Shown here: positions 14,978 through 58,560 of the stretch, piece by piece | How the letters are laid out: every line of letters begins with the position of its first letter | Position numbering within the stretch: the first letter of the stretch is position 1 | NCBI GenBank assembly: GCA_963995525.1 | Contig: OZ023213.1 | Coordinates: 34,612,193 to 34,676,192, forward strand | Direction: 5' to 3' | DNA length: 64,000 nt | DNA from: Escarpia spicata | Taxonomy: Eukaryota > Annelida > Polychaeta > Sabellida > Siboglinidae | Program-made: the position numbers and the translations under genes | The notes under the pieces: generated by a model | Databases searched by the model: none | The model's input: only the letters and a program-made list of their open reading frames with translations | What the model was told of the DNA's origin: nothing

Positions 14978-15440
<463 letters not shown>

Positions 15441-36800: not shown

Positions 36801-39800
36801 TATATACGTACACAAGGGCGGGGGACATGGAAACTGTGATCAAAGGACAGACGGGCGAGTCCAACTGATTGCTGTTGTTGCTGATTACATTTTAGTGACA
36901 ACTTAATGGTAAGAAGATGTTAGTTTCTCTCTCTGGCAGGCTCTGGCAATGATCTCGATGACTTTATACATAGTCACAGGAAAGAAACAGATGTAATAAT
37001 AATTTTATTGCATTTCTCTGCACCATAAATCTGGCAATTATTACCATTCAAAGGTGCTTTACAATCTATGTAATGTAGCTATAATAATTATTAAAAACAT
37101 TAAATATATCTCAATAAGTTGGCCCTATATATACACAGAAAATTAAGACTACAATAGTACGTACGATTATGGCATTATTCCCATTCTGCTAAGGGGCTTT
37201 ATCAGAATAAATGGTCTCGTTTCATAGTATTGTGTCGTTTTTGCATCAGTTACACAATTACAAAGTAAGCCTATTCATACTCACCAGACATGGGGTCAAA
37301 TACATTGAAAAGTATTTAAATGCAAATACTGTTGACATTTCAAATGCAAATACTTTTCAAAAGTATTTCAAATACTTTTCTAATTCTCTTGATCTTGTCG
37401 TGCTCATGCACAATAAATAATTACAAAAAAGAGCTATACTTGATCATTGTTTATTCAGAATTAAGGACGTTCATCGAGTCAATAGTACCAAGCTCTAATC
37501 GGTCACACATTGTTAATTTTTTTCCCCTGTGACAGGTTAATCCTGTTTTCCATTTCCTGTGCCCACTGATGCACTAAACTATGACACTGTATTTCAATAA
37601 AATTAGATTAAGGCACACACTATCAATTAAATGCTTGCTAACCTGACCCTGAGGCAGGTCAGCTGATACACTGATCATCCATCTGACAATGACCCAAGTT
37701 ACAGTTACTGATCAAAGCTTGCAACTGGCTGCAGTTGGTCAGCAAATAAAAGAGCTATAGGGAGGCCAGTTTTCTCTCAGTTAATGTCATGCCTCGGTGA
37801 TCACATAAGTAACATCAGTGACCTGTATCAACTGCCTTGACCAAGCAACAATTTAATTAAGTACAGCTGTGATAACAGTTTTCATTGACAGAATTAAATG
37901 CTATAAGTATTTGATAAAAGTATTTGAAAAGTATTTGATTTTAAAAATACTTTTAAAATGTATTTAAATGCAAATATTTTTGGCTCAAAATTTTGAAATG
38001 CAAATATTGGATCAGTTGGATTTAAATGCATTTAGGATAAATGCATTTGCTTTTGACCCCATGTCTGATACTCACTAATAGTACATGTGACAGCATAAAA
38101 AGTGATAAACGATTTGGCGACTACCGGTACCTGATGAAAATGATGGCATTTTCCCATTCAGCCCCAGGGAGAATTCGGAATCAATGGTATTTCATTACTG
38201 CATTTGGCTTACTGCTACCGATTCCAATACAGCCGGGCATTGTGGGAATTCCCATAATGACCCAGGCGAAGTGAGAATCATTCCCACTTCACACAGATTC
38301 TCCAAACACCAGCAACATATATACGAAGACTACAGACTGACTTAGTCTTAGTGATGAATAGTCAGTTAATTACTTAAAAAATCAGGCCTCAACATTGGCA
38401 CTGCCTTGCTGGCCCAGCACCTTTTTTGAGGCTGTCAGGCTACTTCGGGCACAAGTTTTCATATTTTACTGGCCTGCCGGACCACTGGTTTCAATCTAAT
38501 TGTCTACCACAGTGTTTCCTGTAACCCGACCCTACCTAGAAAAATTAGACGACACGAACGCATCCCACATATTAATGATGGGAGACTTCAATTACCCAAA
38601 TATTAACTGGATGGACGATGCAAATATTGATGAGAGAGCGTGCAGAACAGTGCAGAACAGAGAAGCAGTTCTTAGAAGGCACAAGAGATGCATTCCTTAT
38701 ACAACACATCATGGAACCGACACGCTGCAGATTAAACCAAGTCCCACATCTATTAGACTTGATCTTTTCTAATGAAGAGGACATGGTAAACCACTACAAT
38801 GTCAAGGATCCTCTCGGAAAGAGTGACCACTGTCTGATCACATTTACTTACCAATGTTGTACACCAGTTTCAGGTCAAAGCAGTGAAACGTTCATGTATG
38901 AGAAGGGAAATTATGAACAACTACGGGAAATGTTGCGAGATGACTGGGAAACCAAATTTGAGAAACTAGATCCAGAGGAAAGCTGGGAAATGCTTACAAG
39001 TAGACTAGAAAAGGCAGAGCATAAGTGTATCCCCAAGAAGAAATCAAGGGAATTAGGAAAGTATAAGCCATTGTGGATGAACAAGAAAACAATGGAGAAA
39101 GTGAGGAAAAAGCACAGGGCTTGGAAGAAATACCTACGAACAAAGGAATGGAAAGACTACCTAGATTACACAAAAGCTAGGAATCAAGCAAGAAGAGCTA
39201 CTCGACAGGCAGTCCAGACACTTGAGCAGTCCATTGCACATGAGATTAAAAGCAATCCAAAATATTTCTGGAACTATGCTCGGTAAAAAATGAAAACAAG
39301 ACCAATAGTAGCTGATCTCCAAAATGAAGACACTAAAGAACTAACAACTACAGACAGAGAGAAGACAGAGGTTCTGAGTAAATTCTTTAGTGATGTTTTC
39401 ACTAGGGAAGATTTAACAAATGTACCAACAGTTGAGGAGCACCAGGGAATCGATACCCTAGATGATATCAACTTCACCATTGAAGATGTTGAGAAAAAAC
39501 TGAGAGATCTCAAAACTGGGAAATCACCAGGACCTGATGGTATACACCCCCGTGTACTAAAGGAACTCACGATGAAACTGAGAGTGCCATTGTACATCAT
39601 ATTCAGGAAGTCCTTGGATACAGGCATATTACCAAAAGTTTGGAAAACTGCGAATGTGTCACCAATTTACAAGAAAGGCAGTAGGCATCTAGCAGCAAAC
39701 TACAGGCCGGTAAGCTTGACTGCAGTGGCTTGTAAAGTCATGGAATCGCTGATTAAGGATGCCATTATAACACACACGGAAACTAACAAGTTAATTGCAG

Positions 39801-42285: not shown

Positions 42286-44949
42286 TCAGTCGATGTACGC
42301 CTGCTTAAATAGATACGTTTTAAGGCAAGTTTTGAATTTATCCAAAGTCTCTATTTGACGAACGTTTATTGGTAGAGCGTTCCAGAGCGTAGGTCCAGCC
42401 ACGGAGAAAGCTCGTCTGCCGTAGCCCTCTAAGTTGTAGCGCGGGACTACAAGCAGATGTAGATCAGCAGATCGGAGGTTGCGGGTGGGCGCATACGGTA
42501 TTATGAGATCTTGGATATACACTGGAGCAAGACCATGTAAAGCTGTGAAAACAAGGACCAGCAGTTTGTACTGGATACGCCAGCGAACTGGAAGCCAATG
42601 CAGTTCGACCAGCACAGGTGTTATGTGCTGGTGCTTTCGGTGTCTTGAAATTAGTCTTGCTGCCGAGTTCTGTACCATCTGCAATTTGTTCATAAGTGCC
42701 TCGGTGATGCCGTACAGGACCGCGTTACTCTAGTCCAGCCGCGATGTCACCAGGGCGTGGACTAGTGTCTTACATGCATCAGTAGTAAGACAAAGTCTTA
42801 TTTTTGAAATTGCGTAGAGATGGTAGTACGCTGACTTGGTCATCTGTGACACGTGTGACGACATTGCTAGTCCAGAGTCGATTGTAATCCCGATGTTGCG
42901 GATGGTCGGTGACGGAACAATGTTACATCCGCATACACTAACACACGAAACGTCATGCAGGTGTTTACGATTTGGTGCCGATATGATAATAGCCTCGGTC
43001 TTGTTTTCGTTCAGCAGTAGTTTGTGGTCTGACATACACTGCTTCGCTTCTTCGATGCGTCGCTCGATGCGGTCAACCGCAACAGCGGCTTCTCCATCCC
43101 GCGTTTCACTCAAGTCAACATACAATTGGGCGTCATCTGCATAAAGATGGTATTGCAGCTGGTGCCTTCTGAAGATAGCACCCAATGGGAGAGTGTATAT
43201 GGAGAAGAGAATTGGGTCCAGCACAGACCCGTGTGGGATGCCAGATTCGAGCAATGTTCTATTTGAGTTGTGGCCACTAATGCACATTGACTAAGTCCGG
43301 TTCGACAGGTATGACTCCAGCCATTTCAGTGCGATGCATTCAATGCCTATGCTGCGCAACTGGTTGATTAATATCGAGTGGTCAACAATATCAAACGCCG
43401 CACTCATATCGAGCAGCACTGCCAGCACACTTTTCCTTTTGTCAAGGGAATGGAGATGGTCATTCTAAATGCGCACCAGTGCTGTCTCAGTGCTGTGATG
43501 TTGTCTGTACGCACTTTGGAAAATGTCCATCAAATTGTTGTCGTCTAGATGCTGGCGCTCCAGTAACTTTGAAACAAATGACAAGTTCGATATAGGCCGG
43601 TAGTTGTTCATCGAGTCTGAATCATGGTTTGGTTTCGTTAATAGTGGTGTGATCACAGCATGTTTGAAGTTGGCCGGCACGGACCCCGACTCGAGCGACA
43701 TGTTGATGATTGTAGCTAATGTCGGCGCAAGAATGTCAATGTTGGTTTTCACGAGTGAGGTAGGAAGTGGATCGAGCGCGCTTGATATTTTATTGGACAC
43801 TTCCTTACCAAAGAGAGAACGCCGTCTATGGTGATGCCGTAAAAAGCATTGACTGTGCAAGACTGTTCACAATGCACGTACTCAGCGTTGACAGTTTGCA
43901 GGCGTCTACTCGCTAACTGGCTTCGAATGTCTAACACTTTGCGTGTGAAGTGCACGAGAAAGTCATCTGCCAGTTGTGCTATACCAGACACAAGACTGGG
44001 CTGTTTTGGAGTAGTTTTTGTCTTCATCAAGCCATCCATGATCCTGAACAGTGCTTTGTTGTTACGTGCACATTCATCAATTTTTGTTGTGTAGAATTTG
44101 GCTTTCACAGACTGTATTTGCTGTTTGTAAGTTCCACGCTGTCCAGTGTAGATGTCTCGGTGAATCTGCAGCTTTGTCAGTTTCCATTTCCGCTCTGCTT
44201 GTCGGAGCTTTCGCTTAGCAAGCGATAATTCCACTGTGTGCCAAGCGTGTTGGGGCGCACAGTAATTGACCGTGTGATCAACGGAGCGTGGCTGTCTAAC
44301 AGTTCTTGCAAGGAAGTGTCATACTGTTGCGATAAGTCTGCAATGTTGTTACACGGGCGTGTTGCCAGGTGTGAAAGTTCGAAATCTGATCTGAAATTCG
44401 TGGGATTAATCGCAGCATATTTTCGATAAGAAACCCGCTTCTTTGTTTGGTTCGGCTTTGGTGCTTGGAGCAGGCAGTGTACAGCGTGGTGATCGGTGAG
44501 CAGGGATCCCACCGTCACTGATGTCAGAACGCTTCCTGACGATGGTGAAATTACTAGTTCCAAAATATTGCCGATGGTGTGTGTCGGATCACGAACATGT
44601 TGCTGCAAGTTGGTGACGTGCAGGAGATCAGAGAAGTCGTTTGAGTCTTTATTTCCGGCCTTTCCGTAATGGATGTTAAAATCGCCCACGATAATTAGTC
44701 CAGTCAACTGTGCTGTGAAAAGTTCCAGGAGATTGATGAACTCGGCCATAAACTTGTTGAAAGAAACACCGCCTCGGCCTGTGGATGGAGGTCTGTAAAC
44801 GAGTAATAACCTGATAACACTTGATGGTGTAGCAAACACCACCTCGAGTCACTGGAAGGACAACGCTGGCCAGTGTCGCGATAAGATCATGTTGATACAC
44901 GACTTGTATAAAACACCGATTCCCCCACCTCGTCGGTCGGGCCGAGGTT
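42286..44949 (-). pseudogene. L2 endonuclease (C-term half) and reverse transcriptase, degenerate
   Basis: Reading down from 44949: RRGGGIGVLYKSCINM, LLLVYRPPSTGRGG, LIIVGDFNIHYG (about 44695) and LLTDHHAVHCLL (about 44490), the last two being endonuclease motifs. A frameshift near 44190-44230 leads to a Lys-rich linker. RT: KHAVITPLLTKPN, NNYRPISNLSFVSKLLE (about 43610), LLDMSAAFDIVDHS (about 43405), GIPHGSVLDPILF (His and Asp where Gln and Gly are usual, about 43240), LYADDAQLYV (catalytic YADD, about 43140). C-terminus: LHWLPVRWRIQYKLLVLVF (about 42600) and LKTYLFKQAYID. In-frame stops are at about 43466, 43294 and 42731. Confidence 0.9.
44944..44949. other. target-site duplication, left (GAGGTT)
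   Basis: GAGGTT directly precedes the first base of the palindromic element and is repeated directly after its last base at 58092-58097. Confidence 0.9.
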
Positions 44950-45019
44950 AGTAGTATGGAGGATACACACACACGAGGACACGCCCCCTTTTGTATCTAG
45001 GTACGTGCATAAAAAACGT

Positions 45020-45420
45020 CGATTTCAAAATCGGGATCCTACTTATAAAAAAAGATCAAAGGCTTTTTGGTAACCTGAGTGGAATCGGGATCCTAGTTAT
45101 AAAAAACGTGATTGATGGCCTGTCACTTTTTGTGACTGAAAAGCGCCCTCTAGTGGTTAATAACAACGTCCTAGTTACGGCGTCCTTAGTTACGGCGTCC
45201 CTAGTTACGTGATAACGCCATCTAGCGAATAATAATAGCGTCCCTAGTTACGTGATAACGCCATCTAGCGAATAATATAATAACAGCGTCCCTAGTTACG
45301 ATACGGAGATATAGCAGAAACCAATGGTTATAGCTGAAACCACCGTGGTTATAGCTAAAACCACCGTGGTTACGACATACGGTTATAGCTAAAACCACCG
45401 TGGTTATAAATTAATTAATT
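45020..45420 (+). repeat. subterminal repeats, left arm
   Basis: Short words repeat close to the terminus: GCGTCCCTAGTTACG or a variant about five times, ATCGGGATCCTA twice, ACGCCATCTAGCGAATAAT twice, and GGTTATAGCTAAAACCACCG about four times. Clusters like this near transposon ends often bind the element's own transposase. The mirror lies at about 57620-58020. Confidence 0.8.
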
Positions 45421-45617
45421 AAAATTAATTAATTATATATATAGGCCTGTCACGTTTTGATTGATGACCCTTCCTTGCTTGAGGTGTCACCACCTATCGG
45501 TTATCCCAGTGACTAATTCCCTAGCGATCAACGTAGGACCTACCGTTGTGCTTACGTAAGCACTTATATAGCGTCCCTAGCGATCGTTGTATATATACGT
45601 AATAGGCCTTTATATAA

Positions 45618-45930
45618 CCACAACGGTTATAGCTAAAACCACTGGGTTATAACGGCGCTCTAAACCCATTGTGTGAGAATAACACCGCTGTACCCTATGT
45701 AGCAGTAGCCAGCAGCGCTGGCCTATGATCTGGCGGCCTAGTCGCCTTGCCACGACGTCTTACGTACACCGAGCTCCACCTTCGTGCCAGTTAATGCCAG
45801 CCCGATATATATATATATATGCTTATGTAAGCCCGTATATAACCACAACGGTTATAGCGGCGCTGCGCTCTAAACCCATTGTGTGAAAATAACCCCGCTG
45901 TACCCTATGTAGCAGCAGCGGCGTGCGCTC

Positions 45931-45963
<33 letters not shown>

Positions 45964-45990
45964 ATGACCTATGATCCGGCGGTCTAGTTT
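45618..45990 (+). repeat. duplicated block with (AGC)n, left arm
   Basis: Two copies (about 45618-45750 and 45840-45990) share ACCACAACGGTTATAGC, CTCTAAACCCATTGTGTGA, GCTGTACCCTATGTAGCAG and CCTATGATC(C/T)GGCGG. The second copy has an expanded (AGC)n tract of about 11 units at 45930-45963. Confidence 0.8.
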
Positions 45991-46325
45991 CTAAATATAA
46001 CCATGCGACTAGCCGACTCTGTAACGGCGTTAATTTCAGCCGTGGCGCTATCAAAACGAAACGAATTCCATGCATGCATTTAGCGTTTAAAAGCTGTACT
46101 CAGCGGCCTGTTAAAGCAGGATGGTTATATCGGTGGATAGACGAATGGACGCAAAATGGTGTAAGTTATGTTTTATTAATAGAAGTCACGGTGGCGTGAG
46201 CCAGGTCTGCGTAATGTTTGCTTGAGAGCCTCGTCCCTGTCGTAACCGAGCGGCGCGTGAGTTGTCCCCGTCAAACTGCCGTTGTAGCATTTGTTGAGCG
46301 ACTGGCTGGAATTAACGGCAAGTTT

Positions 46326-46855
46326 TCACACGACATACAGGTTTGTTGTAGAGTGTTGTGTGTAGGCAGGTTCCTTTCCACGTCGAGGCAGGTGGATTCT
46401 GTGAAATAATGCATATGAATAATGAGGAGTTTCCCAAGAACTAAATCACTGTTATTAATATAAAAGTAAATAATAAAAGAATAGTTTAATACATAGCATA
46501 TAAATAATATAAAAAGTAATTAATATAAAATTTACCGATAGGATAAAAGACGAAATACCGCTGTACTAAATAAAATAAATAAAATAAAACTTACCGCTGT
46601 TCTTTGCATATGAATAATGGAGGAGAACTAAATCACTGTTATTAATATAAGAGGAGAACTAAATCAATAATTAATCAAGAATAGTAATTAATAAAGAATA
46701 GTATATTATTAATATAAAAGTAATTAATAAAGAATATAAAACTTACGGATAGGCTAAAAGACGACTTAACGCTCTACTAAATAAATAAAATAAAATAAAA
46801 CTTACCGCTGATCTTTCGTGGAAGGTTGCTCAGACGTTGTGCTGGCGGTAGCCAT
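46326..46855 (-). CDS. putative two-exon mini-gene, left arm (hypothetical)
   Basis: ATG at 46855 opens 16 codons (MATASTTSEQPSTKDQ). Then there is a consensus donor CG|GTAAGT at 46805 and an AT-rich intron. The acceptor TTATTTCACAG lies before 46398, and the frame continues RIHLPRRGKEP to a stop at 46328-46326. It would give a 40-residue peptide; a longer frame also exists in exon 2. An exact mirror copy is in the right arm. Function unknown. The gene-like signals are real; protein expression is inference. Confidence 0.3.
46400..46805 (-). repeat. tandemly duplicated intron block, left arm
   Basis: Two ~200-bp copies, each starting AGCGGTAAGTTTTATTTTAT. Each contains a second GTAA-type donor after CCTATC and ends AACAGTGATTTAGTTCT ... 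ATTATTCATATGCA. The duplication therefore multiplies donor-like GTAAGT sites. The mirror is 56224-56630. Confidence 0.75.
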
Positions 46856-46919
46856 GATTGAATGAAAATGAGCAACGACCGTTGCATGCATGCATTATTT
46901 CCTAAAGACATTTATGCGT

Positions 46920-46960
46920 TAAGCGCGCATGCGCGAAAATGTTAAGCGCGCATGCGCAAA
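46920..46960. promoter_or_regulatory. paired GCGCATGCGC palindromes between divergent ORFs, left arm
   Basis: Two copies of (T/C)GCGCATGCGC(G/A), which fits the published NRF1 binding consensus, sit in a 139-bp gap between ATG 46855 (minus) and ATG 46995 (plus). Binding is inferred, not shown. The mirror pair is at 56071-56106. Confidence 0.6.
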
Positions 46961-46994
46961 AGTGAAGTAAAACATTGAAGGCAAAGAGATCAAA

Positions 46995-47156
46995 ATGGCA
47001 ATAAACGAACGTTTAAATCATAAAATGAACCGTTGTATACGCTTAGTTAGGGATCAGGCATATTGTGGAGTATTAATAATAGAGAAATTCGATGTGAAAG
47101 TCACATTTGACAACGAACGCGCTAACGTGAACGTCGAATTTTTTTCTTGGCAATAA
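46995..47156 (+). CDS. 53-aa hypothetical ORF, left arm
   Basis: ATG in a good context (CAAAATGG) opens MAINERLNHKMNRCIRLV and runs to TAA at 47154-47156. No family is recognised. It is charged, with alternating hydrophobic residues towards the end (VKVTF, VNVEFF). It is divergent to the mini-gene at 46855 and separated from it by the GCGCATGCGC palindromes. It is exactly mirrored at 56034-55873. A frame this long could be chance. It may be a first exon of a transcript continuing to the block at 47503-47886. Confidence 0.3.
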   Translation: MAINERLNHKMNRCIRLVRDQAYCGVLIIEKFDVKVTFDNERANVNVEFFSWQ

Positions 47157-47229
47157 CTGAAACCGGATGGTGACGCAAGCCAGCTGTGGCGCGCGTGACG
47201 CTAATGGGGGTAGCTTATCACGATCGGAA

Positions 47230-47420
47230 TGTGAAGCTAGAACAATGCCATTTCAAAAACGATACACGAACTATAAAAGCATGAATTGAAGCGTTGTTTA
47301 GGATCAGTGGAGAGTAGGGATCTGTGTAGTGCCATTATATTATAGAAAATCGATGTAAATAACGTTTGTGAACGAAAAGCACTACATGACCGTTCATTTT
47401 TTTTTCTCCGAAAGCAAAGA
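47230..47420 (+). repeat. diverged second copy of the 46996-47152 segment, left arm
   Basis: Aligns with the 53-aa ORF region through AAACGATACACGAAC, GCGTTGTTTAGGATCAG, TATTATAGAAAATCGATGT and GTTCATTTTTTTTTCTCCG, but stops occur in every frame. It is an old tandem duplication in which only the first copy is open. Confidence 0.6.
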
Positions 47421-47502
47421 CATCCGAGACTAGTCAGTTATGCGTTAGGCGATTAGTAGGATCTGCTTTGTGCTGTAGGGGTGCGTGCGTAGCGATAACG
47501 AG

Positions 47503-47886
47503 TTGGACGTTATCATCGAGGAGGCGTACCACACATCGAACCGCCGACGTACGAGAGTCTGTACACGGTGTCGCCAACACCGCCGGAAGTGATACAACGT
47601 CAAGTCATCGCGCCGGGTCGGGGTCAGTTGGCCTTCCGCTATGAGCGGCACGCGATGTCCCCCCTCGCCGAACACCTCAGTGAGATGATTCTGGAGAGGG
47701 CGCGCGATCGATGCGGCGCTGTATCTGGTCCAGTTCGTTTCGGACTGGCTGCTAGGCACGGACTGGCGCGACTACATCAACCGCGCTCTGCTGGAGTCGA
47801 CCGTCCATACGTACATTCAGCGCAGGAGCGGACTCGAATAGAACATTATGCTTGCTTTGTTTGCTATAACATTGGTTAAAAATAAA
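47503..47886 (+). pseudogene. coding-like block with poly(A) signal, left arm
   Basis: GC-rich island among AT-rich and repeat DNA. One frame (about 47503-47696) reads IEPPTYESLYTVSPTPPEV and RHAMSPLAEHLSEMILERA. After a one-base shift another frame reads LYLVQFVSDWLLGTDWRDYI and ends in TAG at 47839-47841. AATAAA follows at 47881-47886. Composition and the abrupt frame change look like a protein gene with a frameshift. No family is recognised. A competing minus-strand ORF (47759-47445) is probably a shadow. The mirror is 55538-55155. Confidence 0.35.
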
Positions 47887-48054
47887 AGCCGTTGTTTTGA
47901 ATGTTGTATTACGATGGCGACGCTTAATAAAACGTTGAAAATGTACTTTCCGTTCGACAGTCCCACACAGCTCCCCGAAAGTGCCACACAATTTCCTGAT
48001 AGTCCCACACAGCTCCTTGACAGTAACACACCGCTCCCCGGCAGTACGTCTAAC

Positions 48055-49010
48055 TTGTTACATGTTTGCCTTCCGTACATGGTCCAGCTTGTTACACGTC
48101 TACCTTCCATACATGTACTAGCTTTTTTAATTATTTGCTATCCATACATGGTCTAGCTTGTTACATGTTTGCCTTCCATACACGGACTAGCTTGTTACAT
48201 GTTTACCTTCCATACACGGTCTGGCTTGTTACATGTCTACCTTCCATACATGGTCTAGCTTCTTACATGTCTGCCTTTCATACATGGTCTAGCCTGTTAC
48301 ATGTCTGCCTTCCGTACATGGACTAGCTTGTTACATGTTGGCCTTCCGTACATGGGCTAGCTTGTTACATGTTTGCCTTACGTACATGGACTAGCTTGTT
48401 ACATGTGTGCCTTCCATACACGAACAAGCTTGTTACATGTTTGCCTTACGTACATGGACTAACTTGTTACATGTTTGCCTTCCATACACGGACTAGCTTG
48501 TTACATGTTTGCCTTACATACATGGACTAGCTTGTTACATGTTTACCTTCCATACATGGTCTAGCTTGTTACAGGTCTGCCTTTCATACATGGTCTAGCT
48601 TGATACATGTTTCCCTTCCGTACATGGACAAGCTTGTTACATGTTTACCTTCCATACACGGACTAGCTTGTTACATGTTTACCTTCCATACACGGACTAG
48701 CTTGTTACATGTTTGCCTTCCATACACGGACTAGCTTGTTACATGTTTGCCTTCCGTACATGGTCTGGCTTGTTACATGTCTGTCTTCCATACATGGTCT
48801 AGCTTGCTACATGTTTCCCTTCCATACATGGTCTAACTTGTGACATGTTTGCCTTCCATACATGGTCTAGCTTGTTACATGTTTGCCTTCCATACACGGA
48901 CTAGCTTGTTACATATTTGCATTCCATACATGATCTAGCTTGTTACATGTCTACCTTCCATATATGGTCTAGCTTGTTACATGTCTGCCTTCCGTACATG
49001 GACTAGGTTC
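48055..49010 (+). repeat. 34-bp minisatellite, about 28 copies, left arm
   Basis: Period 34 bp: CTTGTTACATGTTTGCCTTC then CATACATGGTCTAG, with alternations of CATGGTC and CACGGAC. One or two units reappear at 50460-50700, inside the next array. Open frames are artefacts. The mirror is about 54019-54974. Confidence 0.95.
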
Positions 49011-50834
49011 CCTGACAGTCCCACACAGCTTCCGACAGTCACACGCAGTTCCCTGACAGTCCCACACAGCTCCATGACAGTCCCACACAGTTTCCGACAG
49101 TCCCACACAGCTTCCCGACAGTCTCATACAGCTTCCGACAGTCCCACACAGCTCCATGACATTTATTTTATTTAGGTCTTATTATTTAGCAATAGACCGG
49201 TAAGTTGCCTTTTACACGAGTCCTATTAATTATCTTTATTAATTAATAAGAACCTCATTAGTCATGTTTTGATTTAATTTGGGAACCTCCTCATTAGTCA
49301 CAGCGATAGAGCGGTAGGTTCTGGCAGTCCCACACAGCTCCATGACAGTCCCACCCAGTTTCCGACAGTCCCACACAGCTCCATAACAGTATTACACAGC
49401 TTCCTGACAGTCCCACACAGTTCCTGGCAGTCCCACACAGCTCCCCGACAGTCACACGCAGTTCCCTGACAGTCCCACACAGCTCCCTGACAGCCCCACA
49501 CAGTTTCCGACAGTCCCACACAGCTTCCCGACAGTCTCATACAGCTTCCGACAGTCCCACACAGCTCCATGACATTTATTTTATTTAGGTCTTATTATTT
49601 AGCAATAGACCGGTAAGTTGCCTTTTACACGAGTCCTATTAATTATCTTTTATTAATTAATAAGAACCTCATTAGTCATGTTTTGATTTAATTCGGGAAC
49701 CTCCTCATTAGTCACAGCGATAGAGCGGTAGGTTCCGGCAGTCCCACACAGCTCCATGACAGTCCCACGCAGTTTCCGACAGTCCCACACAACTTCCCGA
49801 CAGTCTCATACAGCTTCCGACATTCACACGCAGTTCCCTGACAGTCCCACACAGTTACCCGACAGTCATACACAGCTTCCCGACAGTCCCACACAGCTCC
49901 CTACCACACAATTCCCTGACAGTCCCACACAGTTCCGGTCAGTCCCACACAGCTCCCCGACAGTCTCACACAGCTCCCTGAAAGTACCACACAATTCCCT
50001 GACAGTCCCACACAGTTCCCTTACAGTCACACACAGCTCCCTGTCAGTCCCACACAGCTCCCTGACAGTCCCACACAACCCCCTGACAGTCTCACACAGT
50101 TCCGCCTGATAGTCCCAAAACTCCCGACAGGCCCACACAGCTCCCTGACAGTCACACACAGCTCCCCGGCAGTACCACACAGTTCCTGGCAGTCCCACAC
50201 AGCTCCATGACATTTATTTTATTTAGTTCTTATTATTTAGCAATAGACCGGTAAGTTGCCTTTTACACGAGTCCTATTAATTATCTTTATTAATTAATAA
50301 GAACCTCATTAGTCATGTTTTGATTTAATTTGGGAACCTCCTCATTAGTCACAGCGATAGAGCGGTAGGTTCTGGCAGTCCCACACAGCTCCATGACAGT
50401 CCCACCATACACTTCCCGACAGTCCCACACAGCTTCCCGACAGTCCCACACAGCTCCCTGGCTACATGTCTCCCTTCCATACATGGTCTAACTTGTGACA
50501 TGTTTGCCTTCCATACATGGTCTAGCTTGTTACATGTTTGCCTTCCATACACGGACTAGGTTGTTACATATTTGCCTTCCATACATGAACTAGCTTGTTA
50601 CATGTATACCTTCCATATATGGTCTAGCTTGTTACATGTTTGCCTTTCATACATGGTCTAGCCTGTTACATGTCTGCCTTCCGTACATGGACTAGGTTGT
50701 TACAGCTCCCTGACAGTCCCACACAGTTACCCGACAGACACACAAACTCCTGACTGACAGTGCCACACAGCTCCCTGACAGTCTCACACAGCTCCCTGAC
50801 AGTACCACGCAGTTCCTCGTCAGTCCCATACAGG
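49010..50834 (+). repeat. higher-order array: 21-bp units plus ~160-bp AT-rich blocks, left arm
   Basis: 21-bp units (GACAGTCCCACACAGCTCCCT and variants) form blocks at about 49010-49160, 49317-49570, 49737-50210, 50378-50460 and 50700-50834. Three nearly identical ~160-bp blocks (49160-49316, 49572-49736, 50211-50377) lie between them. Each contains TAGCAATAGACCGGTAAGTT and GTCACAGCGATAGAGCGGTA. The 7-codon period gives long open frames on both strands, with no sign of a real gene. Confidence 0.9.
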
Positions 50835-50994
50835 GGTTCTGTATGTATGTATGTATGTAGGAGCCGTCGCACCACGGCGCCGATACTCGTCTAACTCGTA
50901 TAACTAACTAACTAACTCGTCTAACTCGTAGGGGGGTGGCGGGGGGTTCTGTATGTATGTAGGTATGTAGGTATGTAGGGTAATAAAAACATAC
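50835..50994 (+). repeat. (ATGT)n and AACT-rich central segment, left arm
   Basis: (TATG)n flanks a CCACGGCGCCGATACTCGTC core, (TAAC)n and a GGGGGGTGGCGGGGGG run. It is mirrored at 51361-51526 and again, in part, at 52133-52198. Confidence 0.85.
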
Positions 50995-51360
50995 AATTGT
51001 TTTCAGACTGACAGGAACTGTGTGGGATTGCCAGGAAGATGTGTAATACTGTTATGGAGCTGTGTGGGACTGTCAGGCGGAGCTGTGTGAGACTGTCAGG
51101 GAGTTGTGTGGGACTGTCAGGGAGCTGTGTGGGACTGACAGGGAACGAACTATGTGGTACTGTCAGGGAGCTGTGTGTGACTGTAAGGGAACTGTATGGG
51201 ACTGTCAGGAGCTGTGTGTGATGGTCAGGAGCTGTGTGGGACTGTCAGGGAGCTGTGTGGGACTGTTAGGGAATTGTGTGGTACTGCCGGGGAGCTGTGT
51301 GTGACTGTCAGGGAGCTGTGTGGGACTGCGCGCTTTTACGTGTATAGTAGTAGTAATAAA
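50995..51360. other. unique centre (spacer) of the palindrome
   Basis: 366 bp that is not mirrored. It consists mostly of 21-bp units in right-arm orientation (GGGACTGTCAGGGAGCTGTG), bordered by ATTGTTTTCAGACTGACAGG and TTTTACGTGTATAGTAG. It would be the loop if the arms paired. Confidence 0.8.
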
Positions 51361-51461
51361 GTATGTTTTTATTACCCTACATACCTACATACCTACATAC
51401 ATACAGAACCCCCCGCCACCCCCCTACGAGTTAGACGAGTTAGTTAGTTAGTTATACGAGT

Positions 51462-52803
51462 TAGACGAGTATCGGCGCCGTGGTGCGACGACTCCTACAT
51501 ACATACATACATACATACAGAACCCCTGTATGGGACTGACGAGGAACTGCGTGGTACTGTCAGGGAGCTGTGTGAGACTGTCAGGGAGCTGTGTGGCACT
51601 GTCAGTCAGGAGTTTGTGTGTCTGTCGGGTAACTGTGTGGGACTGTCAGGGAGCTGTAACAACCTAGTCCATGTACGGAAGGCAGACATGTAACAGGCTA
51701 GACCATGTATGAAAGGCAAACATGTAACAAGCTAGACCATATATGGAAGGTATACATGTAACAAGCTAGTTCAAGTATGGAAGGCAAATATGTAACAACC
51801 TAGTCCGTGTATGGAAGGCAAACATGTAACAAGCTAGACCATGTATGGAAGGCAAACATGTCACAAGTTAGACCATGTATGGAAGGGAGACATGTAGCCA
51901 GGGAGCTGTGTGGGACTGTCGGGAAGCTGTGTGGGACTGTCGGGAAGTGTATGGGACTGTCATGGAGCTGTGTGGGACTGCCAGAACCTACCGCTCTATC
52001 GCTGTGACTAATGAGGAGGCTCCCAAATTAAATCAAAACATGACTAATGAGGTTCTTATTAATTAATAAAGATAATTAATAGGACTCGTGTAAAAGGCAA
52101 CTTACCGGTCTATTGCTAAATAATAAGATACGAGTTAGACGAGTATCGGCGCCGTGGTGCGACGGCTCCTACATACATACATACATACAGAACCCCTGTA
52201 TGGGACTGACGAGGAACTGCGTGGTACTGTCAGGGAGCTGTGTGAGACTGTCAGGGAGCTGTGTGGCACTGTCAGTCAGGAGTTTGTGTGTCTGTCGGGT
52301 AACTGTGTGGGACTGTCAGGGAGCTGTAACAACCTAGTCCATGTACGGAAGGCAGACATGTAACAGGCTAGACCATGTATGAAAGGCAAACATGTAACAA
52401 GCTAGACCATATATGGAAGGTATACATGTAACAAGCTAGTTCATGTATGGAAGGCAAATATGTAACAACCTAGTCCGTGTATGGAAGGCAAACATGTAAC
52501 AAGCTAGACCATGTATGGAAGGCAAACATGTCACAAGTTAGACCATGTATGGAAGGGAGACATGTAGCCAGGGAGCTGTGTGGGACTGTCGGGAAGCTGT
52601 GTGGGACTGTCGGGAAGTGTATGGTGGGACTGTCATGGAGCTGTGTGGGACTGCCAGAACCTACCGCTCTATCGCTGTGACTAATGAGGAGGTTCCCAAA
52701 TTAAATCAAAACATGACTAATGAGGTTCTTATTAATTAATAAAGATAATTAATAGGACTCGTGTAAAAGGCAACTTACCGGTCTATTGCTAAATAATAAG
52801 AAC
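51462..52803. repeat. 671-bp direct duplication in the right arm
   Basis: Copy 1 (51462-52132) and copy 2 (52133-52803) start at TACGAGTTAGACGAGTATCG and run through the 34-bp and 21-bp units and the AT-rich block. At sites where they differ (a 3-bp indel near 52622, GACGACTCC versus GACGGCTCC, TTCAAGTATG versus TTCATGTATG), the left arm agrees with copy 2. Confidence 0.85.
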
Positions 52804-54019
52804 TAAATAAAATAAATGTCATGGAGCTGTGTGGGACTGCCAGGAACTGTGTGGTACTGCCGGGGAGCTGTGTGTGACTGTCAGGGAGCTGTGTGGGCCT
52901 GTCGGGAGTTTTGGGACTATCAGGCGGAACTGTGTGAGACTGTCAGGGGGTTGTGTGGGACTGTCAGGGAGCTGTGTGGGACTGACAGGGAGCTGTGTGT
53001 GACTGTAAGGGAACTGTGTGGGACTGTCAGGGAATTGTGTGGTACTTTCAGGGAGCTGTGTGAGACTGTCGGGGAGCTGTGTGGGACTGACCGGAACTGT
53101 GTGGGACTGTCAGGGAATTGTGTGGTAGGGAGCTGTGTGGGACTGTCGGGAAGCTGTGTATGACTGTCGGGTAACTGTGTGGGACTGTCAGGGAACTGCG
53201 TGTGAATGTCGGAAGCTGTATGAGACTGTCGGGAAGTTGTGTGGGACTGTCGGAAACTGCGTGGGACTGTCATGGAGCTGTGTGGGACTGCCGGAACCTA
53301 CCGCTCTATCGCTGTGACTAATGAGGAGGTTCCCGAATTAAATCAAAACATGACTAATGAGGTTCTTATTAATTAATAAAAGATAATTAATAGGACTCGT
53401 GTAAAAGGCAACTTACCGGTCTATTGCTAAATAATAAGACCTAAATAAAATAAATGTCATGGAGCTGTGTGGGACTGTCGGAAGCTGTATGAGACTGTCG
53501 GGAAGCTGTGTGGGACTGTCGGAAACTGTGTGGGGCTGTCAGGGAGCTGTGTGGGACTGTCAGGGAACTGCGTGTGACTGTCGGGGAGCTGTGTGGGACT
53601 GCCAGGAACTGTGTGGGACTGTCAGGAAGCTGTGTAATACTGTTATGGAGCTGTGTGGGACTGTCGGAAACTGGGTGGGACTGTCATGGAGCTGTGTGGG
53701 ACTGCCAGAACCTACCGCTCTATCGCTGTGACTAATGAGGAGGTTCCCAAATTAAATCAAAACATGACTAATGAGGTTCTTATTAATTAATAAAGATAAT
53801 TAATAGGACTCGTGTAAAAGGCAACTTACCGGTCTATTGCTAAATAATAAGACCTAAATAAAATAAATGTCATGGAGCTGTGTGGGACTGTCGGAAGCTG
53901 TATGAGACTGTCGGGAAGCTGTGTGGGACTGTCGGAAACTGTGTGGGACTGTCATGGAGCTGTGTGGGACTGTCAGGGAACTGCGTGTGACTGTCGGAAG
54001 CTGTGTGGGACTGTCAGGG
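52803..54019 (-). repeat. higher-order array, right arm
   Basis: Mirror of 49010-50230: 21-bp blocks separated by the ~160-bp AT-rich blocks at 52652-52818, 53293-53457 and 53713-53869. Confidence 0.9.
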
Positions 54020-54974
54020 AACCTAGTCCATGTACGGAAGGCAGACATGTAACAAGCTAGACCATATATGGAAGGTAGACATGTAACAAGCTAGATCATG
54101 TATGGAATGCAAATATGTAACAAGCTAGTCCGTGTATGGAAGGCAAACATGTAACAAGCTAGACCATGTATGGAAGGCAAACATGTCACAAGTTAGACCA
54201 TGTATGGAAGGGAAACATGTAGCAAGCTAGACCATGTATGGAAGACAGACATGTAACAAGCCAGACCATGTACGGAAGGCAAACATGTAACAAGCTAGTC
54301 CGTGTATGGAAGGCAAACATGTAACAAGCTAGTCCGTGTATGGAAGGTAAACATGTAACAAGCTAGTCCGTGTATGGAAGGTAAACATGTAACAAGCTTG
54401 TCCATGTACGGAAGGGAAACATGTATCAAGCTAGACCATGTATGAAAGGCAGACCTGTAACAAGCTAGACCATGTATGGAAGGTAAACATGTAACAAGCT
54501 AGTCCATGTATGTAAGGCAAACATGTAACAAGCTAGTCCGTGTATGGAAGGCAAACATGTAACAAGTTAGTCCATGTACGTAAGGCAAACATGTAACAAG
54601 CTTGTTCGTGTATGGAAGGCACACATGTAACAAGCTAGTCCATGTACGTAAGGCAAACATGTAACAAGCTAGCCCATGTACGGAAGGCCAACATGTAACA
54701 AGCTAGTCCATGTACGGAAGGCAGACATGTAACAGGCTAGACCATGTATGAAAGGCAGACATGTAAGAAGCTAGACCATGTATGGAAGGTAGACATGTAA
54801 CAAGCCAGACCGTGTATGGAAGGTAAACATGTAACAAGCTAGTCCGTGTATGGAAGGCAAACATGTAACAAGCTAGACCATGTATGGATAGCAAATAATT
54901 AAAAAAGCTAGTACATGTATGGAAGGTAGACGTGTAACAAGCTGGACCATGTACGGAAGGCAAACATGTAACAA
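54019..54974 (-). repeat. 34-bp minisatellite, right arm
   Basis: Mirror of 48055-49010, same unit order. Confidence 0.95.
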
Positions 54975-55154
54975 GTTAGACGTACTGCCGGGGAGCGGTG
55001 TGTTACTGTCAAGGAGCTGTGTGGGACTGTCAGGAAATTGTGTGGCACTTTCGGGGAGCTGTGTGGGACTGTCGAACGGAAAGTACATTTTCAACGTTTT
55101 ATTAAGCGTCGCCATCGTAGTACAACATTCAAAACAACGGCTTTTATTTTTAAC

Positions 55155-55538
55155 CAATGTTATAGCAAACAAAGCAAGCATAATGTTCTATTCGAGTCCG
55201 CTCCTGCGCTGAATGTACGTATGGACGGTCGACTCCAGCAGAGCGCGGTTGATGTAGTCGCGCCAGTCCGTGCCTAGCAGCCAGTCCGAAACGAACTGGA
55301 CCAGATACAGCGCCGCATCGATCGCGCGCCCTCTCCAGAATCATCTCACTGAGGTGTTCGGCGAGGGGGGACATCGCGTGCCGCTCATAGCGGAAGGCCA
55401 ACTGACCCCGACCCGGCGCGATGACTTGACGTTGTATCACTTCCGGCGGTGTTGGCGACACCGTGTACAGACTCTCGTACGTCGGCGGTTCGATGTGTGG
55501 TACGCCTCCTCGATGATAACGTCCAACTCGTTATCGCT
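55155..55538 (-). pseudogene. coding-like block with poly(A) signal, right arm
   Basis: Mirror copy of 47503-47886, with the same frame change and the same AATAAA (here on the minus strand). The two copies are essentially identical. Confidence 0.35.
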
Positions 55539-55872
55539 ACGCACGCACCCCTACAGCACAAAGCAGATCCTACTAATCGCCTAACGCATAACTGACTAGT
55601 CTCGGATGTCTTTGCTTTCGGAGAAAAAAAAATGAACGGTCATGTAGTGCTTTTCGTTCACAAACGTTATTTACATCGATTTTCTATAATATAATGGCAC
55701 TACACAGATCCCTACTCTCCACTGATCCTAAACAACGCTTCAATTCATGCTTTTATAGTTCGTGTATCGTTTTTGAAATGGCATTGTTCTAGCTTCACAT
55801 TCCGATCGTGATAAGCTACCCCCATTAGCGTCACGCGCGCCACAGCTGGCTTGCGTCACCATCCGGTTTCAG

Positions 55873-56034
55873 TTATTGCCAAGAAAAAAATTCGACGTTC
55901 ACGTTAGCGCGTTCGTTGTCAAATGTGACTTTCACATCGAATTTCTCTATTATTAATACTCCACAATATGCCTGATCCCTAACTAAGCGTATACAACGGT
56001 TCATTTTATGATTTAAACGTTCGTTTATTGCCAT
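55873..56034 (-). CDS. 53-aa hypothetical ORF, right arm
   Basis: Mirror of 46995-47156: ATG at 56034, TAA at 55875-55873, same length. See the left-arm copy for content. Intactness in both arms is expected from arm identity alone and is not independent evidence of selection. Confidence 0.3.
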   Translation of the reverse strand: MAINERLNHKMNRCIRLVRDQAYCGVLIIEKFDVKVTFDNERANVNVEFFSWQ

Positions 56035-56070
56035 TTTGATCTCTTTGCCTTCAATGTTTTACTTCACTTT

Positions 56071-56106
56071 TGCGCATGCGCGCTTAACATTTTCGCGCAT
56101 GCGCGC
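56071..56106. promoter_or_regulatory. paired GCGCATGCGC palindromes, right arm
   Basis: TGCGCATGCGCG at 56071-56082 and CGCGCATGCGCG at 56094-56105, each followed by CTTAAC. They lie between the ATGs at 56034 (minus) and 56174 (plus). NRF1-like by sequence only. Confidence 0.6.
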
Positions 56107-56173
56107 TTAACGCATAAATGTCTTTAGGAAATAATGCATGCATGCAACGGTCGTTGCTCATTTTCATTCAATC

Positions 56174-56707
56174 ATGGCTACCGCCAGCACAACGTCTGAG
56201 CAACCTTCCACGAAAGATCAGCGGTAAGTTTTATTTTATTTTATTTATTTAGTAGAGCGTTAAGTCGTCTTTTAGCCTATCCGTAAGTTTTATATTCTTT
56301 ATTAATTACTTTTATATTAATAATATACTATTCTTTATTAATTACTATTCTTGATTAATTATTGATTTAGTTCTCCTCTTATATTAATAACAGTGATTTA
56401 GTTCTCCTCCATTATTCATATGCAAAGAACAGCGGTAAGTTTTATTTTATTTATTTTATTTAGTACAGCGGTATTTCGTCTTTTATCCTATCGGTAAATT
56501 TTATATTAATTACTTTTTATATTATTTATATGCTATTCTTGTATTAAACTATTCTTTTATTATTTACTTTTATATTAATAACAGTGATTTAGTTCTTGGG
56601 AAACTCCTCATTATTCATATGCATTATTTCACAGAATCCACCTGCCTCGACGTGGAAAGGAACCTGCCTACACACAACACTCTACAACAAACCTGTATGT
56701 CGTGTGA
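56174..56707 (+). CDS. putative two-exon mini-gene, right arm (hypothetical)
   Basis: Mirror of 46855-46326. Exon 1 is 56174-56223, donor GTAAGT at 56224, acceptor TTTCACAG ending at 56634, exon 2 is 56635-56707 with TGA. Predicted peptide 40 aa, no family recognised. Exon 2 also has a longer open frame (about 56637-56758, SCENLPLIPASRSTN) that would need a different splice phase. Confidence 0.3.
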
Positions 56708-57067
56708 AAACTTGCCGTTAATTCCAGCCAGTCGCTCAACAAATGCTACAACGGCAGTTTGACGGGGACAACTCACGCGCCGCTCGGTTACGACAGGGAC
56801 GAGGCTCTCAAGCAAACATTACGCAGACCTGGCTCACGCCACCGTGACTTCTATTAATAAAACATAACTTACACCATTTTGCGTCCATTCGTCTATCCAC
56901 CGAATATAACCATCCTGCTTTAACAGGCCGCTGAGTACAGCTTTTAAACGCTAAATGCATGCATGGAATTCGTTTCGTTTTGATAGCGCCACGGCTGAAA
57001 TTAACGCCGTTACAGAGTCGGCTAGTCGCATGGTTATATTTAGAAACTAGACCGCCGGATCATAGGT

Positions 57068-57070
57068 CAT

Positions 57071-57109
<39 letters not shown>

Positions 57110-57112
57110 GAG
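57068..57112 (-). repeat. (AGC)n tract, right arm
   Basis: About 12 CTG units on the plus strand, mirror of 45930-45963, next to CCGGATCATAGG. Confidence 0.95.
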
Positions 57113-57619
57113 CGCACGCCGCTGCTGCTACATAGGGTACAGCGGGGTTATTTTCACACAATGGGTTTAGAGCGCAGCGCCGCTATAACCGTTGTGGTTA
57201 TATACGGGCTTACATAAGCATATATATATATATATCGGGCTGGCATTAACTGGCACGAAGGTGGAGCTCGGTGTGCGTAAGACGTCGTGGCAAGGCGACT
57301 AGGCCGCCAGATCATAGGCCAGCGCTGCTGGCTACTGCTACATAGGGTACAGCGGTGTTATTCTCACACAATGGGTTTAGAGCGCCGTTATAACCCAGTG
57401 GTTTTAGCTATAACCGTTGTGGTTATATAAAGGCCTATTACGTATATATACAACGATCGCTAGGGACGCTATATAAGTGCTTACGTAAGCACAACGGTAG
57501 GTCCTACGTTGATCGCTAGGGAATTAGTCACTGGGATAACCGATAGGTGGTGACACCTCAAGCAAGGAAGGGTCATCAATCAAAAAGTGACAGGCCTATA
57601 TATATAATTAATTAATTTT

Positions 57620-58020
57620 AATTAATTAATTTATAACCACGGTGGTTTTAGCTATAACCGTATGTCGTAACCACGGTGGTTTTAGCTATAACCACGGTGG
57701 TTTCAGCTATAACCATTGGTTTCTGCTATATCTCCGTATCGTAACTAGGGACGCTGTTATTATATTATTCGCTAGATGGCGTTATCACGTAACTAGGGAC
57801 GCTATTATTATTCGCTAGATGGCGTTATCACGTAACTAGGGACGCCGTAACTAAGGACGCCGTAACTAGGACGTTGTTATTAACCACTAGAGGGCGCTTT
57901 TCAGTCACAAAAAGTGACAGGCCATCAATCACGTTTTTTATAACTAGGATCCCGATTCCACTCAGGTTACCAAAAAGCCTTTGATCTTTTTTTTATAAGT
58001 AGGATCCCGATTTTGAAATC
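57620..58020 (-). repeat. subterminal repeats, right arm
   Basis: Mirror of 45020-45420: CGTAACTAGGGACGC about five times and CGGTGGTTTTAGCTATAACC about four times. Confidence 0.8.
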
Positions 58021-58091
58021 GACGTTTTTTATGCACGTACCTAGATACAAAAGGGGGCGTGTCCTCGTGTGTGTGTATCCTCCATACTACT

Positions 58092-58097
58092 GAGGTT
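58092..58097. other. target-site duplication, right (GAGGTT)
   Basis: Second copy of the 6-bp duplication flanking the 13.1-kb element. Confidence 0.9.
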
Positions 58098-58560
58098 GGT
58101 GGACGAAGTTGTATCCATCCGGGGTCAACTTGCTGGTGTTTGGGATGTCCTTGGCGTCATCTGTCAGCCACGTCTCTGTAAGCGCGATGATGTCAAGATC
58201 ATGTTCGTGGATATAATCGGTAATGAAATCAGTTTTGTTCCTGACGGATCTTGCATTTAGCAGAGCAAGGTTTGTGCAGTTGCAAGGATTGTATGGTAAT
58301 GTCAGAGTAATTAAGTTGTCACGTCGAGGTACAGGCTTAATGGGAGTTGTTGGTCGCGCTGACACAAGAAAACGTATCGGTCGTTGTTTGCGTGCACCCT
58401 CACGACAACCTCGATGGGTGGGCCGATGGAGTGCCACCCCCGCTTCACAAGCTGCTCTCCAGGCAGCATTGTTGAGCCGAATGTGACGGCGACCGCTGGG
58501 CAGTAACCGATACAGGCAGGGTCATGTTGGGCGTGTAAACAATGTTTTCTTTGTCCGGGT
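58092..58560 (-). pseudogene. L2-type LINE, 5' part (endonuclease N-terminus)
   Basis: The minus strand reads an Arg-rich leader, then LALLNARSVRNKTDFITDYI (first endonuclease motif with the conserved Asn), DLDIIALTETWL (catalytic Glu), DGYNFVHQP, and stops at the palindrome. Joined across one GAGGTT it continues in frame into RPDRRGGGIGVLY at 44949, the usual order in L2/CR1 endonucleases. The 5' boundary is uncertain; similarity fades above about 58560. Confidence 0.88.

What the first reader, a model, noticed from the sequence alone, without database searches (positions are those of the whole stretch)
44950..58091. A 13.1-kb almost perfect palindrome behaves as a single transposed unit
Seen: exact inverted ends (AGTAGTATGG...), arms of about 6.05 kb that mirror each other with about 12 nt net length difference, a 366-bp loop, and a 6-bp direct duplication GAGGTT outside. 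Known: foldback elements and Polintons have long inverted repeats, but arms covering essentially the whole element at this size and identity are unusual. Inference: a giant non-autonomous foldback-type element, possibly undescribed, that is young or kept uniform by gene conversion between arms.
Basis: partly seen in the sequence, partly recalled or inferred. Interest (0 to 1): 0.93.

Follow-up and report, generated by a model that had tools for sequence, protein, structure and literature searches.

The report
Palindromic satellite of a virus-like transposon
A 13-kb stretch of this large genome is a mirror-image, gene-less hitchhiker of a virus-like jumping element (a Polinton), seen in at least eight copies whose two halves tend to change together, which hints at a copy-back way of replicating.

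Summary
The palindrome is real (44950-58091, 13,142 bp; arms 6,045 and 6,731 bp, loop 366 bp, duplication GAGGTT). The arm claim needs correction: the right arm holds an extra 674-bp tandem copy. It is not a classic foldback element. Tips (AGTAGT...ACTACT), 6-bp duplications and outer 426 bp match Polintons of the same genome, one of which has rve/chromo integrase, RPA-like and (marginally scored) PolB ORFs. Both arms derive from the Polinton LEFT end; the arm interior follows its left half in order at about 80% identity. So it is a non-autonomous left-left inverted duplication. Eight copies were found (lower bound), seven with different 6-bp duplications. The six other copies compared share its loop, so the palindrome arose once. 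Yet tips agree at both ends in 8 of 8, in five types of which four occur exactly in Polintons, and outer blocks were replaced through non-homologous junctions, the same in both arms in 7 of 8. Best mechanism: a Polinton-dependent satellite rebuilt by copy-back synthesis, like snapback defective viral genomes. Copy-back is inferred; chromosomal gene conversion between arms is the main rival. C3a, and the young differences between C891 and C11, do not show joint change.

The parts
44944..44949 (.). left copy of the 6-bp target-site duplication GAGGTT
58092..58097 (.). right copy of the 6-bp target-site duplication GAGGTT
44950..50994 (+). left arm of the palindrome, 6,045 bp
50995..51360 (.). 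366-bp loop, mostly 21-bp repeats; found full length at 99.2-100% in the 6 other palindromes compared
51361..58091 (-). right arm of the palindrome, 6,731 bp
44950..45375 (+). outer left block, 97% identical to the left end of Polintons of the same genome
57665..58091 (-). outer right block, also the Polinton LEFT end, 97% identical
46940..47954 (+). arm interior with five blocks in Polinton order, 76-89% identical (arm 1991-2497, 2504-2577, 2631-2771, 2770-2885, 2971-3005)
48050..49006 (+). 34-bp tandem array, 28.1 copies, left arm
54023..54981 (-). 34-bp tandem array, about 28 copies, right arm
50870..50995 (+). inner end of left arm, matches Polinton sequence at the 3' end of and just behind the PolB-like ORF (76-81%)
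51331..51360 (-). last 30 bp of the loop, 100% match to the Polinton slightly further behind the PolB-like ORF; marks the turning point
51454..52801 (.). 674-bp tandem duplication (two copies) at the inner end of the right arm
44177..44842 (-). part of the interrupted non-LTR retrotransposon endonuclease region (Exo_endo_phos_2)
58087..58521 (-). other part of the same region (Exo_endo_phos weakly, below cut-off); with one GAGGTT the flanks join into one open frame across the junction

Best explanation
It is a non-autonomous Polinton/Maverick derivative made of two inverted copies of a Polinton left half around a loop, moved by the enzymes of Polintons in the same genome. SHOWN: left-left structure, Polinton tips and 6-bp target duplications, no long ORF in what was scanned, several insertions of the whole unit, one common loop, and mostly joint change of the two arms. 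INFERRED: movement in trans by Polinton integrase and DNA polymerase. INFERRED with less certainty: the palindrome is rebuilt by copy-back. A strand starts at a tip, copies one arm, passes the loop and then uses its own complementary 5' half as template (or snaps back as a hairpin whose mismatches are repaired). Both arms, and any new tip or outer block gained by template switching from a Polinton, then become identical in one round.
For: Same tips and outer 426 bp as Polintons. The C9 Polinton (16,555 bp, TSD ATCCAC) has rve+chromo, RPA-like and PolB-like ORFs. Its right terminal repeat matches its left end for only about 230-260 bp, whereas both palindrome arms match the LEFT end for 426, 509 or 1,462 bp. 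Eight palindromes, seven with perfect, different 6-bp duplications. The C10 loop is present in the 6 other palindromes compared. Outer 3 kb of the arms differ by 0.03-0.17% within 6 of 7 elements, against 0.04-6.6% between elements; the nearest relative of 13 of 14 arms is its own partner. In the A group 37 of 48 variable sites are shared by both arms, 9 are single-arm, 2 multi-allelic. Tips identical at both ends in 8 of 8. Outer blocks joined to the core at non-homologous points, same junction in both arms in 7 of 8. Outer 1,462 bp of C891 and C11 are 99.7% identical to one Polinton copy (L034), the core 79-84% to Polintons.
Against: No replication intermediate, excision or transposition was observed. 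C3a's arms carry different outer blocks, and there single-arm changes outnumber joint ones 13 to 4. Between the near-identical copies C891 and C11, 11 differences are single-arm and 2 joint over whole arms, and C891_L is nearer to a C11 arm than to its partner: recent changes are not yet, or not always, shared. Over whole A-group arms 53 of 109 variable sites are single-arm, 35 of them in one C14 arm. C9a has no target duplication and 74 bp of mirrored flank, which looks chromosomal. The PolB score is marginal (26.2 bits, cut-off 25.8), and the genome-wide search with that family reported one place only, on C1, not the C9 element. Capsid, ATPase and protease genes were not recognised. Tip agreement also holds for ordinary Polintons, so on its own it does not single out the palindrome.
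Confidence: 0.66

Rival explanations
1. The same Polinton-derived unit, but the arms are kept alike by gene conversion between them while sitting in the chromosome, as in sex-chromosome palindromes; tips and outer blocks change first in one arm and are then copied to the other.
For: C9a: flank mirrored for exactly 74 bp and no target duplication, as if a conversion tract ran past the end. Single-arm differences between C891 and C11 fit slow conversion as well.
Against: C3a's arms have drifted and carry different outer blocks. Outer-block junctions are non-homologous, which needs template switching or end joining first. Only 1 of 8 elements shows unlike outer blocks.
Confidence: 0.28
2. Each copy was folded into a palindrome independently from a single-arm progenitor, so arms look identical because each palindrome is new.
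For: Very high arm identity in 6 of 7 elements.
Against: The same 366-bp loop at the turning point in all 7 palindromes whose centre was fetched.
Confidence: 0.03
3. Assembly or read artefact (missed-adapter hairpin reads, or polishing that copied one arm onto the other).
For: Near-perfect arms over 6 kb; reads could not be inspected.
Against: Matching, different 6-bp duplications at seven loci and unmirrored flanks at 6 of 7 loci compared; single-arm differences such as the 674-bp copy-number difference are kept. Only C9a has a mirrored flank (74 bp).
Confidence: 0.03
4. A classical foldback (FB/Galileo, Mutator-like) element.
For: Long inverted arms with internal 21- and 34-bp tandem arrays.
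Against: 6-bp duplications, AGTAGT tips and direct homology to Polintons.
Confidence: 0

Closest known systems
Polinton/Maverick transposons (polintoviruses)
   Same: Terminal motif (AGT)2//(ACT)2, perfect 6-bp target duplications and the size range (12.7-24.6 kb for intact vertebrate Mavericks; passages of PMC8097293); direct homology to Polintons of this genome.
   Different: No long ORF found; inverted arms of 6.0-7.5 kb against terminal repeats of 46-1,447 bp in intact vertebrate Mavericks and about 230-260 bp in the local Polinton; both ends are the left end.
Snapback (self-complementary) defective genomes of adeno-associated virus
   Same: One end of the parent genome in self-complementary form, symmetric or asymmetric with a loop, replicating with helper functions (passages of PMC8235507).
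   Different: Parvoviral and found in virions; here the unit is integrated with target duplications and inherited, and the parent encodes a PolB-like polymerase.
Left-end DNA in adenovirus incomplete particles (Daniell 1976)
   Same: Recalled as left-end inverted duplications of a protein-primed linear genome; [quoted passage not shown]
   Different: The 1976 paper is not held, so the inverted-duplication claim is recalled; transient, not heritable insertions.
Foldback elements (FB, Galileo)
   Same: Very long inverted repeats with internal sub-repeats (recalled).
   Different: Different superfamily, recalled as having other target duplications and Mutator- or P-like transposases.

Membership tests
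Polinton/Maverick (as non-autonomous derivative) | terminal motif (AGT)2 // (ACT)2 | tested here: met
   AGTAGT...ACTACT at both ends of 8 of 8 palindromes; motif from passages of PMC8097293
Polinton/Maverick (as non-autonomous derivative) | 6-bp target-site duplication | tested here: met
   perfect in 7 of 8 palindromes; C9a lacks it; the C8 one (CACACA) lies in CA-rich sequence and is weaker evidence
Polinton/Maverick (as non-autonomous derivative) | terminal sequence shared with a Polinton of the same genome | tested here: met
   426 to 1,462 bp at 97-99.7%; 92.6-94.5% in C8
Polinton/Maverick (autonomous) | own PolB and rve integrase genes | tested here: not met
   no stop-to-stop frame of 200 aa in 7 of the 12 fetched loci of six palindromes; in the window copy none of 150 aa with a start codon, and 4 of its ORFs have no Pfam match
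Polinton/Maverick (helper in this genome) | PolB and rve integrase | tested here: met
   C9 element: rve 47.4 bits and chromo 30.6 (over cut-off), RPA-C 41; PolB marginal, 26.2 against 25.8; genome-wide PF03175 search listed only another place on C1
Polinton/Maverick (helper in this genome) | capsid, ATPase and protease genes | tested here: inconclusive
   no profile or PDB-sequence match for the other ORFs tested
Snapback defective genome (works like) | inverted duplication of one parental end around a loop | tested here: met
   left-left arms, turning point just behind the PolB-like ORF
Snapback defective genome (works like) | replicates only with helper; interferes with it or is packaged | not testable with these tools
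   needs experiments
Foldback (FB/Galileo, Mutator-like) | family-specific termini and longer target duplication (recalled, about 9 bp) | tested here: not met
   6-bp duplications and Polinton tips

The most novel reading that the evidence does not exclude
A heritable lineage of snap-back satellites of a Polinton, spreading in a genome as near-perfect 13-14-kb palindromes, rebuilt by self-templated copy-back during replication and repeatedly re-capped, at both ends at once, with the tips of whichever Polinton serves it. Its joint arm changes would be a sequence record of Polinton DNA replication through an extrachromosomal, strand-displacing intermediate.
Probability: 0.48. Interest if true: 0.87.

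Novelty: new variant of a known kind. Interest (0 to 1): 0.73.

Why it matters
How Polintons copy themselves has not, as far as I recall, been seen directly. This family is a natural experiment: one palindrome origin, at least three outer-block replacements and two further tip switches, mirrored in both arms through non-homologous junctions in all copies but C3a. That makes copy-back against chromosomal gene conversion directly testable. It also suggests that virus-like transposons can have their own heritable, defective-genome-like satellites, and shows that palindromes with 6-kb arms can spread in a genome.

Tried and rejected
Rejected: classical foldback element (Polinton homology); independent folding of each copy (shared loop); pure artefact (different matching duplications, unmirrored flanks at 6 of 7 loci compared); coding capacity inside the palindrome: no stop-to-stop frame of 200 aa in L009, L010, L011, L013, L015, L017, L019, i.e. 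7 of the 12 loci fetched for six palindromes (L012, L014, L016, L018, L020 not scanned), and 4 window ORFs without Pfam match.

Led nowhere: a genome-wide count with a palindrome-specific probe and a genome-wide look for the 74-bp mirrored flank of C9a (both did not complete; in the loci held, the flank has no further copy); PDB sequence search for two helper ORFs; PHROGs; tip motif in viral contigs, 0 matches. The host was not identified. In one search only 40 of 1,048 candidates were scored, so eight palindromes is a lower bound.

Literature (10 searches): no paper on palindromic or snap-back Polinton derivatives stood in the listings; several listings were cut (for example 15 of 276, 12 of 561, 15 of 98), only open-licence PMC papers are searched, and Repbase is not. 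Seen in passages only: PMC6431247, PMC12090768, PMC8097293, PMC2871265, PMC2836005, PMC8235507, PMC4028283, PMC5718144. Not seen: Kapitonov and Jurka 2006, Pritham 2007, Daniell 1976.
Full report
OBSERVATION. The palindrome occupies 44950-58091, 13,142 bp. Outer arms 44950-50901 and 52128-58091 are 99.73% identical (4 mismatches, 12 gap bases in 5,964 columns). The complete arms are 6,045 bp (left) and 6,731 bp (right) around a 366-bp loop. The right arm is longer because a 674-bp segment is present twice at its inner end. GAGGTT lies on both sides. With one copy of it the two flanks join into one frame that is open across the junction and for some distance on both sides, with one stop further on; the neighbouring frames match Exo_endo_phos_2 and RVT_1, and the right-hand piece matches Exo_endo_phos weakly, below its cut-off. 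The element therefore sits in an older retrotransposon as a clean insertion.

COPIES. The terminal 301 bp gave 42 matches in the genome, with only 40 of 1,048 candidates scored. Sorted by later calls: 17 matches belong to eight palindromes (C3a and C8 have an extra tip copy; the left end of C8 was not among the 42), 4 to a tandem array of 3,597-bp units on C3, and 21 to non-palindromic elements, 3 fetched and 18. Of those 18, 17 follow the Polinton left end over about 2 kb (L047 at 93%) and one (L046) over 881 bp. The palindromes measure 13,122 to 14,527 bp. Target duplications: C10 (the window copy) GAGGTT, C891 GCCATG, C11 CACAGT, C14 CATTCT, C12a AACATA, C3a CACCTG, C8 CACACA, the last in CA-rich sequence. 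C9a has none; its flank is mirrored for exactly 74 bp. Of C8 only 5 kb at one end and 2 kb at the other were fetched; its centre is unseen.

THE PARENT. The element at C9:21602489-21619043 (16,555 bp by the coordinates) has ATCCAC on both sides and ORFs with rve (47.4 bits, cut-off 32.6), chromo (30.6, 25.1), Rep_fac-A_C (41, 28.5) and DNA_pol_B_2 (26.2, 25.8). The last is marginal; the same family on the C3 array element scores below its cut-off (22.7), and the genome-wide search with PF03175 reported a single place on C1. Capsid-type genes were not recognised. Right ends of ten further Polinton copies were sought (two of them with long ORFs seen, eight known by their ends only) and nine were found, all nine with perfect 6-bp duplications; eight have identical 45-bp tips at both ends, one (L032) differs by one base, and for L038 no right tip lay in the stretch fetched. 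For intact vertebrate Mavericks the end motif (AGT)2//(ACT)2, perfect 6-bp duplications and terminal repeats of 46-1,447 bp are reported (passages of PMC8097293). The tips here fit that motif.

LEFT-LEFT STRUCTURE. The right terminal repeat of the C9 Polinton matches its left end for about 230-260 bp. Both palindrome arms match the LEFT end for longer: 426-427 bp in C10, C14 and C12a, 509 bp in C9a, 1,462 bp in C891 and C11. Further in, blocks of the C10 arm follow the Polinton left half in order at 76-89% identity, with protein-level remnants of the 201-aa ORF and a 20-aa match to the RPA-like one; no PolB remnant was found by tblastn. The inner arm end and the last 30 bp of the loop match sequence at the end of and just behind the PolB-like ORF. 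Between them lie 34-bp and 21-bp arrays. The element is thus an old inverted duplication of the Polinton left half that lost its genes.

ONE ORIGIN, JOINT EVOLUTION. The C10 loop is found full length at 99.2-100% in the 6 other palindromes compared, so the palindrome formed once. In the outer 3 kb the two arms of one element differ by 0.03-0.17% in six of seven elements and by 0.66% in C3a, while arms of different elements differ by 0.04-6.6%; for 13 of 14 arms the nearest relative is the partner arm, the exception being C891_L, nearer to a C11 arm, and C10_R is a near tie with C14_L. Part of the larger values comes from outer blocks that are not homologous. Over all seven elements 118 of 137 variable columns are shared by both arms, 10 are single-arm, 6 mixed, 3 multi-allelic, with the same caveat. 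Within the A group (C10, C14, C12a, C9a) 48 sites vary in 2,971 gap-free columns of the outer 3,050 bp: 33 shared by both arms of one element, 4 by both arms of more than one, 9 single-arm, 2 multi-allelic, none mixed. Against this: in group B (C891, C11, C3a) 16 sites are single-arm and 6 joint, C3a giving 13 and 4; between C891 and C11 over whole arms 11 are single-arm and 2 joint; over whole arms of the A group 53 of 109 are single-arm, 35 in one C14 arm. Joint change thus dominates between diverged copies in the outer arm, not among the most recent differences.

TIPS AND OUTER BLOCKS. The first 45 bp are identical at both ends in 7 of 7 palindromes and in C8. They fall into five types; four occur exactly in Polintons, and the C9a type differs from a Polinton type at one base. 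C10 and C14, whose arms differ by 0.1-0.24%, have different tips. Random pairing of the 16 tips would make all eight pairs agree with probability 2.2e-5; copies are related, so this is a guide only, and ordinary Polintons show tip agreement too. The outer Polinton-like block ends at different places: Polinton 426-427 (C10, C14, C12a; C10 is the reference, so the core side is undefined), 509 joined to arm 452 (C9a), 1,462 joined to arm 898 (C891, C11), a tip duplication plus about 895-903 joined to arm 1296 (C8); both arms of each element show the same junction. C3a is the exception: 747 joined to 1065 in one arm, tip duplication plus 1,153 joined to 1063 in the other. At the junctions displayed, Polinton and core are not homologous and share at most a few bases. 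The outer 1,462 bp of C891 is 99.73% identical without gaps to one Polinton copy (L034, C3:36423138), while the core is 79-84% identical to Polintons.

MECHANISM. Shown: a Polinton-derived, left-left palindromic mobile unit, inserted as a whole, whose arms and tips have largely changed together. Inferred: movement in trans by Polinton integrase and replication by Polinton polymerase. Inferred with less certainty: copy-back. A strand that has copied one arm and the loop is complementary to its own first half; finishing on itself makes both arms identical and copies a newly gained outer end to the other side. Tip agreement in ordinary Polintons suggests that copying one end onto the other belongs to Polinton replication in general; in the palindrome it would reach through the whole arm. 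The rival is chromosomal arm-to-arm conversion: C9a's mirrored flank speaks for such events, C3a's diverged arms against their being efficient, and the C891/C11 single-arm differences fit either.

COMPARISON. It is a non-autonomous Polinton derivative by tips, duplications and homology; it is not an autonomous Polinton. It works most like snapback defective genomes, described for adeno-associated virus (passages of PMC8235507). The similar claim for adenovirus left-end duplications is recalled; the source is not held. Ten literature searches, some with cut listings, showed no palindromic Polinton; subscription papers and Repbase were not searched.

LIMITS.

Noticed in passing
C3:60345202-60356294 (L027, L028): Four Polinton left tips in direct orientation, exactly 3,597 bp apart, with a 278-aa ORF in each of the three 3.6-kb units, followed by a 1,315-aa PolB-like ORF: an amplified Polinton left end.
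   Followed up: partly
C9:58808944-58823084 (L019, L020): Palindrome C9a lacks a target duplication; 74 bp of flank are mirrored exactly on the other side, then similarity stops.
   Followed up: partly
L024:9501-10000 (C9b): A Polinton (TSD CAGCTC) sits directly beside 21-bp and 34-bp arrays up to 95.6% identical to the palindrome arm, so perhaps inside a palindrome copy.
   Followed up: no
C3a, L017/L018: Both arms share the core-side junction (arm 1063-1065) but carry different Polinton blocks outside it, as if a truncated palindrome had been capped separately at each end.
   Followed up: partly
window 14980-15440: A nearly perfect array of a 6-bp unit, about 0.4 kb, open in several frames.
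   Followed up: no
window 38618-40867: Two adjacent plus-strand ORFs of 222 and 525 aa, the second with a reverse transcriptase domain: part of a non-LTR-type element.
   Followed up: no
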